Source: Bacteroidota bacterium (lineage in GTDB: Bacteria; Bacteroidota; Ignavibacteria; Kapaibacteriales; NICIL-2). From it: DNA of 64,000 nucleotides. Both the position numbers and the translations under genes were made by a program. The stretch lies in contig JAIBAE010000016.1 of the NCBI GenBank assembly GCA_019695345.1, positions 1-64,000 of the forward strand, written 5' to 3'. Positions 48,005-57,212 of this stretch are shown in pieces; the first letter of the stretch is position 1, and every line of letters starts with the position of its first letter. The notes under the pieces are model-generated. The model made no database searches. It was not told the DNA's origin and saw only the letters and a list, made by a program, of their open reading frames with translations.

Positions 48005-49231
48005 ATGGAACACAAGTGGATGAATATGAGATTTATTGCCTTGGCTGTTAGCTCAGCTTTTTTGGCAATTGTTCTTCCGCTAAAAATTGTGTTCGATGAT
48101 TTTCATACTCTGTGGGTTGATGTTTGTATCTGGATTGTAAGTGCTGTGTTTGCGGCAGATATGTTTTTTAGCATTCGCAGACGTAAAGTACGCGGACAAA
48201 GAGTGATGACGCAGTATGTAAAGATGTGGTTAGTAATTGATGCTATTTCGATAATACCGGTAGCGGTATTCTTACCTCATTCTCCGTTACAACTTATTCA
48301 GTTGTTAAAAGTGATACACATCACATCGTTTCTGCAAGAGTATACACGGCGTAAACCACGTAATGCTGCATTTCTGCGGTTAGGACAGTTTGGATATATT
48401 ATTCTTGTTGCCATCCATTGGATTGCATGTGCGTGGATGTCTATACGTCCGGAAAATCGTGCTGATGATATTACCCGGTATATTAAATCGTTATACTGGG
48501 CAACTACAACAGTGGCAACAGTGGGGTATGGAGATATTACACCTAACACAAATAACGAAATGATATTTGCAATTGGAGTGATGTTGTTTGGCGTTGTTAT
48601 GTACGGTTACTTAATTGGTAACATCGCATCGTTACTAAATAATATGGACCCCGCACGTGTACACCATCAAGAAAACTTAGATAGAGTTCACGCGTTTATG
48701 CGGTACCGGAATATACCCCACGAGCTTGAACAAAAAATCAACGAGTACTTTAATTACATTTGGGAAAAGCGTTTGAGTTACGATGAAAGCTCAGTAATGG
48801 CAATGCTTCCCGCCGGTTTAAAAACAGAAGTCTCGTTGTACTTAAAACGCGAAGTTATAGAGCGCGTGAGTATGTTCCGAAATGCTTCCGATGAGTTTAT
48901 CAAAGATATTGCCGCACATATTCATCCATCTATTGTACTACCCGGCGAGTTTGTATTTAAAGCAGGAGAAACGGCACGCAGTATGTATTTTATCAGCCGG
49001 GGAGTTGTACAAGTTATATCTACCGATAATGAAACAATTGCAACACTTTCCGATGGTGACTTTTTTGGCGAGATGGCTCTGCTACACAAACGTAAGCGCA
49101 ATGCAAGTGTTCGAGCATCGGACTTTACCGATTTATATGTACTTGATGTTGCTACATTCGAGCGCATTGTAGAGGAACATCCTGACTTTAAACTGCAATT
49201 AGAAGAGACAGCAGAACAACGCTCAAAGTAA
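48005..49231 (+). CDS. cyclic-nucleotide-gated K+ channel homologue
   Basis: A 408-residue inner-membrane ion channel subunit. Six hydrophobic segments lie in the first 215 residues, with a pore loop carrying the potassium filter TVGYGD (172-177). The S4-like segment has few basic residues, so voltage sensing is doubtful. After a C-linker (residues about 220-290) a cNMP-binding domain follows: PGEFVFKAGETARSMYFISRG, GDFFGEMALLHKRKRNASVRA. The phosphate-binding FGEMALL and the RNAS arginine suggest real cyclic nucleotide binding. It follows pth by 6 nt. Resembles bacterial MloK/KAT-type channels. Confidence 0.9.
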   Translation: MEHKWMNMRFIALAVSSAFLAIVLPLKIVFDDFHTLWVDVCIWIVSAVFAADMFFSIRRRKVRGQRVMTQYVKMWLVIDAISIIPVAVFLPHSPLQLIQLLKVIHITSFLQEYTRRKPRNAAFLRLGQFGYIILVAIHWIACAWMSIRPENRADDITRYIKSLYWATTTVATVGYGDITPNTNNEMIFAIGVMLFGVVMYGYLIGNIASLLNNMDPARVHHQENLDRVHAFMRYRNIPHELEQKINEYFNYIWEKRLSYDESSVMAMLPAGLKTEVSLYLKREVIERVSMFRNASDEFIKDIAAHIHPSIVLPGEFVFKAGETARSMYFISRGVVQVISTDNETIATLSDGDFFGEMALLHKRKRNASVRASDFTDLYVLDVATFERIVEEHPDFKLQLEETAEQRSK

Positions 49232-53065: not shown

Positions 53066-54730
53066 ATGAATTCAACAACAATCAATCTTGAATCGTTACT
53101 CGACCTAAGTGCAAAACTGAACGAGAGTAATAGCGTGGAGTATATCCTTAATGCGGCATTGCTTAGCCTGATGGGGAAGTTGCGCATTATGCGAACAGCG
53201 GCGTTGATTCCGGTTAAAGATAGATTACAAGTTCTTGTATCTAAAGGGAAACTGCAAAACGCTGAATACAACAAGATTAATTGTGCCACATTGTTCGAAG
53301 TAACAGAAGAGAATCCCGATTTATTGAGCGACGGATTTGTTACATGTGCACCAATTTGTTCTCGCGGGGAGTTGCGCGCCGTGATATGCTTAGGCAACAA
53401 CATCACCAAAACCCCTTTAGATGGCACAGAAAAACAGTATGTAACGTTAGTGTGTACTATCATTGCTAACGCTTTGCAAACAGCCGAGTTTGTTCATCAC
53501 TTGATACAAGAGAAGGCATCGGTAGAAGCGCGTAACCAGTTGTTGCAAACAATGTTTGATATGAGCTTGGAGTTAAGCTCTACATTTACCAAGGAACAAA
53601 TACTGCAGACATTCTCCTTTAGGTTAATGGGACAGCTAATGGTTAGTAAGTTTGCCTTAGCACTAAAACGTCCTGATGGTTCAATGGAACTACTAGCTAA
53701 CCGATTTCCCATAACATTTACCGATGAACAACTTGAGTTACTTCAGTTGTTACGTAAAACTATCTTTACGAATGCTATAGAATTACCTGAACGCATTCGT
53801 GGTGTAATACAGGAACAGAATATTGCAGTTTTAACTCCGCTAACAGTAAAAGGTGAGGTGCGCGGTGTGTTGGCAATTGGAAAAAAACTACACGGTGAAT
53901 TTACCGAAACGGAAACCAAGTTTGTGGAATCGTTAGGTTCAACAGTAGTTACTGCGTTAGAGAACTCCAGATTATTCCAGGAAGAATTAGAGAAAAAGAA
54001 ACTTGAAAGTGAGTTGGACATTGCTAAGCAAATTCAACGTAAACTCCTACCCGATGTATTGCCAACCCTGCCCGGTTTTGATATTGCCGGAATGAATATT
54101 TCATCGAAGCAAGTTGGTGGCGATTATTATGATGTAATACCGCTTCCTAACAATGTAGCCCATGTTGCTATTGCAGATGTTTCGGGAAAAGGGATGCCTG
54201 CTTCGTTGTTAATGGCAAATGTTCAGGCTGCGTTGCGTGTGTTGGTTCCGTTGCAATTACACCTGCCTGATATGATTGCCCGGCTTAATGACATCGTATA
54301 TACAAATACCAGTGCTGATAAGTTTGTTACATTCTTTGGCGCACATGTTCATGCAACCGAGCGGAAGATTGAGTTTACTAATGCAGGACACAATCCTCCG
54401 TTACTTTGTAAAACAAATGGCGATATTATTGAGCTCAGCGATGGTGGCTTGATACTTGGTGTTATGGAAAGTATGATACCTTACAAGCAAGGTTGTATTG
54501 TAATGGAAAAAGGTGATGTGTTGTTAATGTTTACCGATGGCGTTAACGAAGCTATGGATGAAGACAACAAAGAATTTGGTGATGACAGGTTAAAGATGGT
54601 TTTATGTGACCACGCGCACCTAAGCTCCAACGAGATATTAAATGTTATTGTGCGCGACATAAAGCAACACGCAGGTAAAGCCCCGCAAAGCGACGATATT
54701 ACTCTTTTAGTTATTAAGGCAGTAGAATGA
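53066..54730 (+). CDS. GAF-domain PP2C/SpoIIE-type serine phosphatase
   Basis: Regulatory protein phosphatase of 554 residues. Two GAF-like sensor regions (about 10-150 and 165-310) are followed by a linker helix (LESELDIAKQIQRKLLP) and a PPM/SpoIIE catalytic domain. Metal-binding motifs are VGGDYYDV, IADVSGKGMPASLLMAN, NAGHNPPLL, FTDGVNEAMDED and KAPQSDDITLLVI. Proteins of this build act on anti-sigma antagonists or other phosphoserine partners. No partner switch genes are adjacent. Its stop overlaps the ruvA ATG (ATGA). Confidence 0.92.
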   Translation: MNSTTINLESLLDLSAKLNESNSVEYILNAALLSLMGKLRIMRTAALIPVKDRLQVLVSKGKLQNAEYNKINCATLFEVTEENPDLLSDGFVTCAPICSRGELRAVICLGNNITKTPLDGTEKQYVTLVCTIIANALQTAEFVHHLIQEKASVEARNQLLQTMFDMSLELSSTFTKEQILQTFSFRLMGQLMVSKFALALKRPDGSMELLANRFPITFTDEQLELLQLLRKTIFTNAIELPERIRGVIQEQNIAVLTPLTVKGEVRGVLAIGKKLHGEFTETETKFVESLGSTVVTALENSRLFQEELEKKKLESELDIAKQIQRKLLPDVLPTLPGFDIAGMNISSKQVGGDYYDVIPLPNNVAHVAIADVSGKGMPASLLMANVQAALRVLVPLQLHLPDMIARLNDIVYTNTSADKFVTFFGAHVHATERKIEFTNAGHNPPLLCKTNGDIIELSDGGLILGVMESMIPYKQGCIVMEKGDVLLMFTDGVNEAMDEDNKEFGDDRLKMVLCDHAHLSSNEILNVIVRDIKQHAGKAPQSDDITLLVIKAVE

Positions 54731-55326
54731 TTGCTCGATTACAAGGAACGTTAATAGAAAAGTCAACCAACGAAGTTGTTGTAGATTGTAACGGCGTTGG
54801 ATATGTAGCTTCGGTTTCCGTTGCTACATCGGAAGTGATGCAGTTGGGTGAAAAAGTATCGGTGTATACTTATCTGGCAGTACGAGAGGATGCTCTGCAA
54901 TTGTTTGGCTTTGCTACCAAAGAGGAACGCGATATGTTCTTACTTCTTACGTCAATTTCCGGGATTGGTGGCAAGATTGCATTAGGATTACTGTCGGCTG
55001 CAAGTATCAAGGAGTTACAACAAGCAATTGTAGAAAAGAACGCAACGTTCCTACAACGATTACCCGGCATTGGTAAAAAAACTGCAGAACGTATTGTGTT
55101 GGAATTGCAGGACAAAGTTCAAACACTTGCTATTGGGGTTGATAAAGCGCAGGTGAGTGGAGGAATGTCGTTTGTGCAAAGTGAGGCGGTAGCAGCATTA
55201 TCGGCATTGGGATATCAGCGGGCAGCAGCTGAAAAAGCTGTGAAGAATGCAATGCAAGAACAACCAAGTTTACAATGGACTGCGGAATCGTTGATTCGTG
55301 CTGCCCTGAAGAATGCAGCAAAGTAA
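54727..55326 (+). CDS. ruvA: Holliday junction DNA helicase subunit RuvA
   Basis: Binds the four-way junction and loads RuvB. 199 residues. N-terminal OB fold (MIARLQGTLIEKSTNEVVV, GYVASVSVATS), the tandem helix-hairpin-helix region with LLTSISGIGGKIALGLLSA and LQRLPGIGKKTAERIVLEL, then the flexible linker and C-terminal domain III (AVAALSALGYQRAAAEKAV). Full length; translationally coupled to the phosphatase gene. Confidence 0.96.
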   Translation: MIARLQGTLIEKSTNEVVVDCNGVGYVASVSVATSEVMQLGEKVSVYTYLAVREDALQLFGFATKEERDMFLLLTSISGIGGKIALGLLSAASIKELQQAIVEKNATFLQRLPGIGKKTAERIVLELQDKVQTLAIGVDKAQVSGGMSFVQSEAVAALSALGYQRAAAEKAVKNAMQEQPSLQWTAESLIRAALKNAAK

Positions 55327-55458: not shown

Positions 55459-56205
55459 ATGATGTTAATAATACCTGCAATGGACTTTACACAAGGCCAT
55501 TGTGTGAGGAAAATACAAGGTGAACCGGGTACTGAGCATTTTTACGAGCAACTATCGGAGAACCCGCATGAGTTGGCGAAGTTGTGGAGGATAGAAAATG
55601 CAAAGTCTTTACATATAACTGATAGAGACAGTTTAAATGGGAACGATAATTCGGATAACATTGCTTCGATAAATGATGTGATTGATGCCGTTGATATTCC
55701 CGTAGAGTTGTATTCGGATTTTAAATCGGTTGAGGAGTGTGAGCATTGGTTGGAAGAAGGTTGCTTCAGGTTGGTGTTAACAACATTATTGTTGGATGAC
55801 CCCGATGGCGTGCGAAGGTTAGTTAAAGAATTTACGGCAAGCAGAGTTGTTTTAGGAATGCGTACTAATAACAGAATGGTAGAGTTTGCAGGAGAGTATC
55901 CGGCAATGAGAGATACAGATTTTGCAATGCTGGCAAAAGATGTTGGTATAAAGCGTATTGTGTACAGTGATGCTAATTGGGAAGGCACCTATTTTGGACC
56001 AGATGTAGAAACTTTAAAAGCTGTTGCACAAGATACGGGTATGAGAATTACCGCATCAGGTGGAATTGATTCGCCGCAAGAATTATGGATGATTCAGGAC
56101 TTGTATACATATGGTGTTGACTCCGTAGTTGTAGGCAGGGCCTTGTTTGAGAACCGATTTCCATGTCAGAAAATTTGGAGATTAATTGAAGCAGAAACTA
56201 AGTGA
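55459..56205 (+). CDS. divergent HisA-family protein
   Basis: A 248-residue TIM-barrel protein clearly related to HisA, the phosphoribosyl-formimino isomerase of histidine synthesis. The start IIPAMDF carries the first catalytic Asp (Asp9). YSDANWEGTYFGPDVETL matches the DGTL/GPN segment, and ASGGIDSPQELWMIQDL with VVVGRALFE keeps the C-terminal phosphate site. However, the first phosphate loop (GGGIR in HisA) reads YSDFK at residues 85-89, and the second catalytic Asp aligns with Met134 (LGMRTNN). It may be a paralogue with another role or a reshaped enzyme. No other his genes are present. Confidence 0.8.
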   Translation: MMLIIPAMDFTQGHCVRKIQGEPGTEHFYEQLSENPHELAKLWRIENAKSLHITDRDSLNGNDNSDNIASINDVIDAVDIPVELYSDFKSVEECEHWLEEGCFRLVLTTLLLDDPDGVRRLVKEFTASRVVLGMRTNNRMVEFAGEYPAMRDTDFAMLAKDVGIKRIVYSDANWEGTYFGPDVETLKAVAQDTGMRITASGGIDSPQELWMIQDLYTYGVDSVVVGRALFENRFPCQKIWRLIEAETK

Positions 56206-56319: not shown

Positions 56320-56457
56320 ATGGAGCAGCAACCATTACATCTGTTCAAACCAAAAAAATTGTCAATTGATAATCCCGAATCGTCAGTTTGGCTTTGTGGT
56401 ATTCAGCAGTTGGTAACAATTGTTGAAGTGCTATTGATTTTTATTTTTTGTATATGA
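56320..56457 (+). CDS. possible 45-residue upstream peptide overlapping ftsQ
   Basis: ATG to TGA, 45 codons plus stop. The polar N-terminal half (MEQQPLHLFKPKKLSI) is followed after a short middle by a hydrophobic C-terminus (LVTIVEVLLIFIFCI). Its TGA overlaps the ftsQ ATG as ATGA, and its ATG is about 7 nt after the predicted transcription start. It could be a leader peptide, a small membrane protein or chance. I do not recognise a family. Confidence 0.3.
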   Translation: MEQQPLHLFKPKKLSIDNPESSVWLCGIQQLVTIVEVLLIFIFCI

Positions 56458-57212
56458 ATCATACAAGCACAAGCGAGCTACATAAGGAAAGAGGGATAGG
56501 TCAGTTTCTTGTGTATGTGTTGGTTGCTTTGTTTTTTGTTGGGGCTGCCATTAAATGGAACTCCAGACAAAAGATTACCAACCTTTCCTTAAAAGGAAAC
56601 ACCTACATTACAACTGAGGAAATTCAATCCTTATGTACTCAAGATAGCACTGAATCAAATTCAACAATTGATTTAGCACAAACAAGAAGCTTAGTATTAC
56701 AGCATCCGTTTGTTAGAAATGCATCTGTTGAGCACATAAACTCTAACAATGTTTCTATAACAATAACTGAACGAGTGCCCATTGCAGTACTTTTGCTTAA
56801 CGATGGTTCTCTGAAATACGTAGATGAAGAAAATGTGATTCTTCCGTATAGAGTTATTAATGGAATGGCAGACCTTCCGTTGATTAGGGGACTTCAGAAA
56901 AACAGTTCTTTAGAAATTGATACCAATTACTTGCAAAAATGTGTAGCCCTGTTAAATCAGGTTACCCATGAAACCCAGAAGTATATTGCTAATGATATAT
57001 CAGAGATGATAGTAAACAGACAACTTGGTTTGTTGAAGCTGAAAACCTCCGAATCTAACGCAACTATATTGATGGGAAGTATGGAAACAGTTGAAGAAAA
57101 TTTATCGAAACTGAATGCAATGTATGAGTATTGTTCTAAACAAAACAACATGAGATTACAAGGTTTGGTTGATTTACGTTGGAAGAATAAGGTTATAATT
57201 AGAAACAGTTAA
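56454..57212 (+). CDS. ftsQ: cell division protein FtsQ/DivIB
   Basis: Bitopic divisome protein linking FtsA/FtsZ to septal wall synthesis. 252 residues: a short cytoplasmic start, one TM helix (FLVYVLVALFFVGAAI, about residues 18-35), then a POTRA domain (ITNLSLKGNTYITTEEIQ, LQHPFVRNASVEHINSNNVSITITER) and a beta domain. Sequence conservation is low, as usual for FtsQ, but the order before ftsA and ftsZ supports the call. ATG 56454 was chosen over a TTG two codons upstream. Confidence 0.88.
   Translation: MNHTSTSELHKERGIGQFLVYVLVALFFVGAAIKWNSRQKITNLSLKGNTYITTEEIQSLCTQDSTESNSTIDLAQTRSLVLQHPFVRNASVEHINSNNVSITITERVPIAVLLLNDGSLKYVDEENVILPYRVINGMADLPLIRGLQKNSSLEIDTNYLQKCVALLNQVTHETQKYIANDISEMIVNRQLGLLKLKTSESNATILMGSMETVEENLSKLNAMYEYCSKQNNMRLQGLVDLRWKNKVIIRNS

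What the first reader, a model, noticed from the sequence alone, without database searches (positions are those of the whole stretch)
55459..56205. HisA homologue missing a phosphate loop and one catalytic Asp
An ungapped reading against HisA shows the N-terminal phosphate loop GGGIR replaced by YSDFK and the catalytic Asp of the SLDTRGG segment replaced by Met134. Asp9 and the C-terminal phosphate site remain. The gene stands alone, not in a his operon. It may act on a substrate with one phosphate, or have a regulatory role.
Basis: partly seen in the sequence, partly recalled or inferred. Interest (0 to 1): 0.5.

Follow-up and report, generated by a model that had tools for sequence, protein, structure and literature searches.

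The report
Histidine enzyme kept without its pathway
A bacterium that apparently cannot make histidine by the usual route still carries, under strong natural selection, a changed copy of one histidine-making enzyme whose original active site is partly gone, which suggests the protein has a second, still unknown job.

Summary
The gene is real: a 248-aa HisA-fold protein (AF2 pLDDT 95; PriA/HisA top the fold list). The 99.9% complete genome shows no other hisA, no hisF over cut-off, and no hisB, hisG, trpC or trpF family match, so HisA or PriA/TrpF work is unlikely. Relatives, mainly from Kapabacteria and Ignavibacteria, belong to a HisA lineage with nine signature residues (142 of 142 rows; 0 of 27 ordinary HisAs). 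Members scored as true HisA keep the full active site. Of 65 tested genomes with the gene, 44 lack hisB and hisG; 18 genomes also hold an ordinary HisA. The most altered members (f3) keep the barrel's N-terminal face and the C-terminal FPCQxxW helix rather than the active-site face; ordinary HisAs show the reverse; two less altered groups show no significant contrast. dN/dS is 0.02-0.21 where computable. Best reading: a HisA descendant kept for a non-histidine role, carried at least partly by the face opposite the active site. In the window's clade the pocket is remodelled (Arg135, Trp174, Glu175) with one phosphate site kept. Role and partner remain unidentified.

The parts
55459..56205 (+). 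HisA-derived protein P0001, 248 aa, (beta-alpha)8 barrel
   Evidence: first row of VIA-align 2: PriA 2vep Z 28.3, rmsd 2.1, 222 aligned
55483..55485 (+). codon of Asp9 (HisA general base, role recalled); D in 32 and E in 12 of 44 Kapabacteria-group rows
55588..55599 (+). R44-x-E46-N47, at the end of helix alpha1 (N-terminal face of the barrel); R44 and N47 are signature residues
55711..55725 (+). YSDFK (85-89) in place of the N-terminal phosphate loop GGGIR
55861..55863 (+). Arg135 in place of the second catalytic Asp
55978..55986 (+). W174-E175-G176 in place of R/K-D-G; E175 in 43 of 44 Kapabacteria-group rows
56056..56067 (+). C-terminal phosphate site S200-G-G-I203, retained
56152..56190 (+). 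C-terminal motif N232-x-F-P-C-Q-x-I-W-R-x-x-E244, into helix alpha8
54727..55326 (+). ruvA, 132 bp upstream; the nearest upstream ORF is ruvA in 32 of 75 loci (window included)
   Evidence: TIGR00084 204.6 bits, cut-off 85
56448..57212 (+). ftsQ-like ORF, followed by ftsA and ftsZ
   Evidence: ftsQ weak, 29 bits against cut-off 353; ftsA and ftsZ over cut-off

Best explanation
The protein descends from a HisA subtype found in Chlorobi, Ignavibacteria and Rhodothermota-like lineages and is kept for a second, non-histidine function. Shown: the his and trp marker genes tested are absent from this genome; one catalytic Asp and one phosphate loop are gone; relatives are under strong purifying selection; the gene is retained in genomes without his markers and in genomes that also hold an ordinary HisA. 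Inferred: what is under selection in all members lies on the face of the barrel opposite the active site plus the C-terminal FPCQxxW helix, most simply a contact site for a partner protein. Also inferred: in the window's clade the old pocket has been rebuilt (D/E9, Arg135, Trp174-Glu175, one phosphate site) and probably binds a phosphorylated small molecule. Partner and ligand are unknown.
For: No HisF over cut-off and no IGPD, HisG, TrpF or TrpC match in the 99.91% complete genome; the same searches ring in 13 or 14 of 14 control genomes. 44 of 65 distinct tested genomes with the gene lack both IGPD and HisG. In 18 genomes both this gene and an ordinary HisA were read. Of 78 positions fixed in 49 reference HisAs, f3 members (12 rows) keep 6 of 48 on the active-site face and 13 of 24 on the opposite face (Fisher p 0.0004); Kapabacteria rows (44) keep 15 of 48 and 15 of 24 (p 0.02); ordinary HisAs (27) keep 29 of 48 and 4 of 24 (p 0.0005). 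The direction holds with a thinned reference set and without motif-found rows. Nine signature residues in 142 of 142 rows (88 of 88 not found through the motif) against 0 of 27. dN/dS 0.02-0.21 in the 12 of 14 pairs that gave a ratio, ten of them free copies. No stop inside the gene in 36 of 36 rows, window included.
Against: No partner, ligand or phenotype is known. Neighbours differ between clades, so synteny names no partner. The fixed residues may be the folding core of this HisA subtype; they are equally fixed in members that look like working HisA. No coordinates were available, so clustering in space rests on strand order. The face contrast is not significant for f12 paralogues (26 of 48 against 17 of 24, p 0.21) or the ignOrphan group (21 of 48 against 16 of 24, p 0.083); f12 rows keep Asp9 and the second Asp in 12 of 12. 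25 of 61 order genomes gave no copy of this type, so it is not indispensable. One origin of all free copies is not rejected (AU p 0.054). dS exceeds 1 in seven of the 12 pairs, so those ratios are rough.
Confidence: 0.6

Rival explanations
1. A new enzyme: the rebuilt pocket (D/E9, Arg135, Trp174, Glu175, one phosphate site) catalyses a reaction on a one-phosphate substrate, and the fixed residues on the opposite face are only the fold's stability core.
For: In the Kapabacteria group D/E9 in 44 of 44, Arg135 in 40 of 43 and Glu175 in 43 of 44 rows; the C-terminal phosphate site is kept.
Against: The f3 family keeps the gene under selection (dN/dS 0.065-0.10 in three pairs) although position 9 is E, A, D, S or K, position 135 holds seven different residues and both glycines of the remaining phosphate site are present in only 2 of 12 rows.
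Confidence: 0.25
2. It is still a ProFAR isomerase or PRA isomerase (HisA or PriA/TrpF).
For: HisA family membership and fold; Asp9 present.
Against: Second catalytic Asp and one phosphate loop lost; no HisF over cut-off and no HisG, IGPD, TrpC or TrpF match in the genome; TIGR00007 139 bits against cut-off 229.
Confidence: 0.04
3. A relic on its way to loss.
For: Active site partly lost; 25 of 61 order genomes show no copy of this type.
Against: dN/dS far below 1 in the pairs that gave a ratio, no stops in 36 of 36 rows, 23 invariant columns among f3 rows that are 31-83% identical to their first member.
Confidence: 0.03

Closest known systems
HisA, ProFAR isomerase (TIGR00007), Chlorobi-Rhodothermota type with a longer C-terminus (PMC8305728, passages seen)
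   Same: Same lineage by the nine signature residues, including the C-terminal F-x-C-x-x-x-W; Asp9; C-terminal phosphate site. That the C-terminal addition described in the paper is this motif is my inference.
   Different: GGGIR and the second catalytic Asp lost; his marker genes absent; 139 bits against cut-off 229
PriA, SubHisA and SubTrpF of Actinobacteria (PMC5404923, outline, abstract and passages; PMC13055916, abstract and outline)
   Same: First rows of the fold list are PriA/HisAp; precedent for a HisA homologue retained and altered after loss of his or trp genes
   Different: There the retained proteins are described as isomerases of those pathways or of specialised metabolism; here markers of both pathways are absent and catalytic residues are gone
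AglZ/HisF2 and WbuZ (NF038364, TIGR03572)
   Same: HisA/HisF-superfamily proteins named for roles outside histidine synthesis
   Different: HisF-like; the window protein scores 33 and 36 bits against cut-offs of 310 and 300. Such proteins are separately present in five of the 44 genomes without his markers

Membership tests
HisA, ProFAR isomerase (TIGR00007) | HisA/HisF fold and family profile | tested here: met
   PF00977 4.5e-40; model against PriA/HisA Z 28
HisA, ProFAR isomerase (TIGR00007) | score over the curated equivalog cut-off | tested here: not met
   139.2 against 228.95 bits
HisA, ProFAR isomerase (TIGR00007) | first catalytic Asp | tested here: met
   Asp9
HisA, ProFAR isomerase (TIGR00007) | second catalytic Asp | tested here: not met
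   Arg135; Asp in 76 of 76 reference and ordinary HisA rows
HisA, ProFAR isomerase (TIGR00007) | N-terminal phosphate loop GGGIR | tested here: not met
   YSDFK
HisA, ProFAR isomerase (TIGR00007) | C-terminal phosphate site | tested here: met
   SGGI and GR
HisA, ProFAR isomerase (TIGR00007) | his pathway present in the genome | tested here: not met
   no HisF over cut-off, no IGPD, no HisG; hisD, hisC, hisI, hisE and hisH were not searched
PriA / TrpF | trp pathway present with a missing TrpF to fill | tested here: not met
   no TrpF family match and no TrpC; other trp genes not searched
PriA / TrpF | PRA isomerase activity | not testable with these tools
   needs an assay or complementation
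HisF / AglZ / WbuZ | score over cut-off | tested here: not met
   HisF 37 of 295, WbuZ 36 of 300, AglZ 33 of 310 bits
FPC-type HisA lineage (named here) | R44, N47, R104, R166, D221, S222, F234, C236, W240 | tested here: met
   all nine present, as in 142 of 142 rows that I placed in the lineage

The most novel reading that the evidence does not exclude
The HisA of the Chlorobi-Ignavibacteria-Rhodothermota lineages has been a two-job protein since before the his pathway was lost in Kapabacteria: a ProFAR isomerase on one face of the barrel and a partner-binding protein on the other. In Kapabacteria the first job vanished with its pathway and only the second remains; lineages that now carry an ordinary-type HisA kept the old protein because its second job could not be replaced.
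Probability: 0.4. Interest if true: 0.75.

Novelty: new variant of a known kind. Interest (0 to 1): 0.55.

Why it matters
HisA is a textbook enzyme for how barrels evolve, and the retained HisA homologues described in the papers seen here stay isomerases. Here evolution appears to have separated the catalytic face from the rest in two directions, so a hidden non-catalytic role of HisA becomes directly testable: the same nine residues can be mutated in a cultivable Chlorobi HisA. It also warns that a hisA-like hit in such genomes should not be read as histidine prototrophy.

Tried and rejected
HisA in a working pathway, PriA and TrpF were tested by marker genes and rejected for this genome. Neighbourhoods were clustered to find a partner: ruvA recurs within Kapabacteria, a cNMP-binding protein plus Usp in class families f12 and f17, pfkB in Ignavibacteria; I saw no gene recurring across these clades, so no partner is claimed. 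Two structure comparisons showed only HisA, PriA, HisF and designs made from HisF among the 50 rows printed each; rows not printed are not excluded. The last helix of the f3 model has pLDDT 42-47, so its packing there is unproven. Paper searches: HisA with PriA and gene loss; Kapabacteria with histidine and auxotroph (0 papers); Kapabacteria with genome and amino acid biosynthesis (0); HisA with moonlighting or pseudoenzyme; HisA with paralog, orphan and the like; Ignavibacterium with hisA; HisA with Chlorobi and C-terminal. In the listings (capped at 8-15 rows) I saw no paper on this protein; only open-licence full texts are held, so absence from print is not claimed more widely.

Limits of the counts. 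The 80 named loci (L052-L131) were found through two peptide patterns, one of them the C-terminal motif; one search repeats the tests without them. Group labels were assigned by me from context and motif, so 142 against 27 describes a clean split, not a blind test. The group labelled operonFPC, called reference HisAs here, holds 49 rows: 11 named Ignavibacteria-like loci (8 with a hisB-, hisH-, hisA-, hisF-like row) and 38 rows that score over the TIGR00007 cut-off; for most of those 38 the operon and the pathway were not examined. One ordinary row (L202) is truncated. The ignOrphan group holds three rows (L112, L121, L122), kapaOrphan two (L023, L028) and 'other' one (L109) whose genomes do have IGPD or HisG. 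79 genomes were given, not all relatives and named loci; G071 and G059 are one assembly and are counted once. In one search no ratio came out for two of 14 pairs (L095/L103, L020/L027). The quick tree left out 26 of 169 rows (near-copies and L202) and warned that long branches meet; the careful tree used 75 rows, left out f3, and its bootstrap had not settled (0.987).

Full report
Observation. Window 55459-56205 (+) encodes an intact 248-residue protein. It is a HisA/HisF family member (PF00977, 4.5e-40) but scores 139 bits against the HisA equivalog cut-off of 229. The AF2 model from a 36-row alignment has pLDDT 95.3 and pTM 0.91; the first rows of the second-look alignment are PriA 2vep (Z 28.3, rmsd 2.1, 222 aligned) and other HisA/PriA entries.

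Genome. The window lies in a 4.56-Mb assembly of 163 contigs, 99.91% complete. Of six PF00977 matches at E up to 1, this gene is the only full-length one (137.6 bits; the next has 24.1). No HisF passes its cut-off, and IGPD (hisB), HisG, TrpF and TrpC gave no match. Control genomes rang in 13 or 14 of 14. Other his and trp genes were not searched. The gene thus has no evident histidine or tryptophan pathway to serve. The same-family genome G001 has a contig of 2,193,228 bases, the length of the named Candidatus Kapabacteria record KatS3mg040.

Distribution. Of 61 order genomes, own included, 45 gave a match; 36 are of this type, 28-53% identical to the window, and the other nine (f7) match by ordinary HisA/HisF proteins. 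A scan of named genomes gave 271 relatives, the best 80 kept; titles are mostly Kapabacteria, Ignavibacteria, Chlorobiota or Bacteroidetes, with a few others. Of 65 distinct tested genomes with the gene, 44 have neither IGPD nor HisG. Five of the 44 have a second PF00977 protein: AglZ/HisF2 over cut-off in four, WbuZ-like below cut-off in one. Of 26 order genomes with the gene, 24 lack IGPD and HisG, 26 lack TrpC and 22 lack any TrpF-family match.

Lineage. Two HisA types exist in the rows collected. One, called FPC-type here, carries nine residues in 142 of 142 rows, 88 of 88 not found through the motif; none of 27 ordinary rows carries all nine. The careful tree separates the types (100/100). 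The 49 reference rows with the FPC signature, scored as HisA over cut-off or lying in Ignavibacteria-like his loci, have Asp at positions 9, 135 and 175 in 49 of 49. In eight of 81 loci an FPC-type gene sits in a row of IGPD, a class-I glutamine amidotransferase, hisA and a gene that reads as hisF. In print: Chlorobi and Rhodothermota HisA has an added C-terminal region, and Ignavibacterium album and Melioribacter roseus have a shorter HisA in an operon thought to be acquired by transfer (PMC8305728, passages). The passages I saw name extra hisF and hisH copies in M. roseus and no second hisA. Loss of histidine synthesis in Ca. Kryptonia is also in print (PMC4737851, passages).

Retention. In 18 genomes I read both an ordinary HisA and an FPC-type copy: G016, G036, G078, G081, G086, G088, G090, G092, G096, G099, G119, G129, G133, G148, G166, G192, G207 and G215. 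In nine loci the free gene is directly followed by a member of the pfkB family that also lies downstream of the his genes in the eight loci above, and in three more by an AIR carboxylase. This fits deletion of an operon around the gene, or assembly of an operon around it elsewhere; the direction was not tested. Rooted on ordinary HisA, the careful tree puts one free group inside the operon-type clade (99/84) and the other 36 free rows in one clade (92/81, not starred); a single origin is not rejected (AU p 0.054).

What is conserved. Positions were split by the model's strand and helix limits into the active-site face and the opposite face. A position counts as kept if at least 90% of a group has the reference residue. 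Of 78 positions fixed in the reference rows, f3 keeps 6 of 48 active-site-face, 13 of 24 opposite-face and 4 of 6 C-terminal positions (p 0.0004); Kapabacteria rows 15, 15 and 5 (p 0.02); paralogPar 21, 21 and 6 (p 0.0004); ordinary HisAs 29, 4 and 1 (p 0.0005, reversed). f12 paralogues (26, 17, 6; p 0.21) and the ignOrphan group (21, 16, 4; p 0.083) show no significant contrast. With a thinned, motif-free reference set and motif-free rows p is 0.008 for f3 (6 rows), 0.0004 for Kapabacteria (30 rows) and 0.0035, reversed, for ordinary HisA. Relatedness among rows is not corrected for. f12 rows keep Asp9 and the second Asp in 12 of 12 but have Asn at 175 in 12 of 12, so they may still be isomerases of some kind. 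dN/dS is 0.02-0.21 in 12 of 14 pairs; dS exceeds 1 in seven of them.

Mechanism. Shown: marker genes absent, altered active site, strong constraint. Inferred: selection acts on the opposite face and the C-terminal helix. In HisF the matching face docks the glutaminase HisH (recalled, not tested). Against this, the residues may be only the fold's core. In the window's clade the pocket is rebuilt rather than simply eroded: D/E9 in 44 of 44, Arg135 in 40 of 43, Glu175 in 43 of 44. A phosphorylated ligand there is likely. The f3 model is still a HisA-like barrel (first rows Z 25.9) with its last helix at pLDDT 42-47.

Comparison. The nearest precedent is PriA and its sub-families, retained and changed after loss of his or trp genes but still described as isomerases (PMC5404923, abstract and passages; PMC13055916, abstract and outline). 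This case differs in that markers of both pathways are absent and catalytic residues are lost while the gene stays under strong selection.

Verdict. Not an ordinary hisA and not an artefact: a conserved HisA-derived family for which I found no characterisation in the searches named. New variant of a known kind; interest 0.55.

Noticed in passing
G014, G018, G022, G029, G070, G089: A TrpF-family (PF00697) protein scoring only 47-85 bits occurs in these genomes, which have no TrpC match; several Ignavibacteria have such a low scorer beside a TrpF of about 120-167 bits. It looks like a second orphan isomerase-like barrel.
   Followed up: no
L172-L185: In class families f12 and f17 the free HisA copy is followed by a cNMP-binding protein (11 of 14 loci examined) and a universal stress protein (11 of 14), with an IF-2B family protein nearby in 9 of 14.
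   Followed up: partly
L172, L175, L177, L182, L184: An acyl-CoA dehydrogenase family gene lies directly upstream of the free HisA copy in five of 14 loci.
   Followed up: no
window 48005-49231: An ORF that reads as an ion channel with a cyclic-nucleotide-binding domain, judged by eye from its sequence only.
   Followed up: no
G091 (L122): IGPD and HisG match but only one PF00977 gene, the free type, was found; possibly an incomplete assembly.
   Followed up: no
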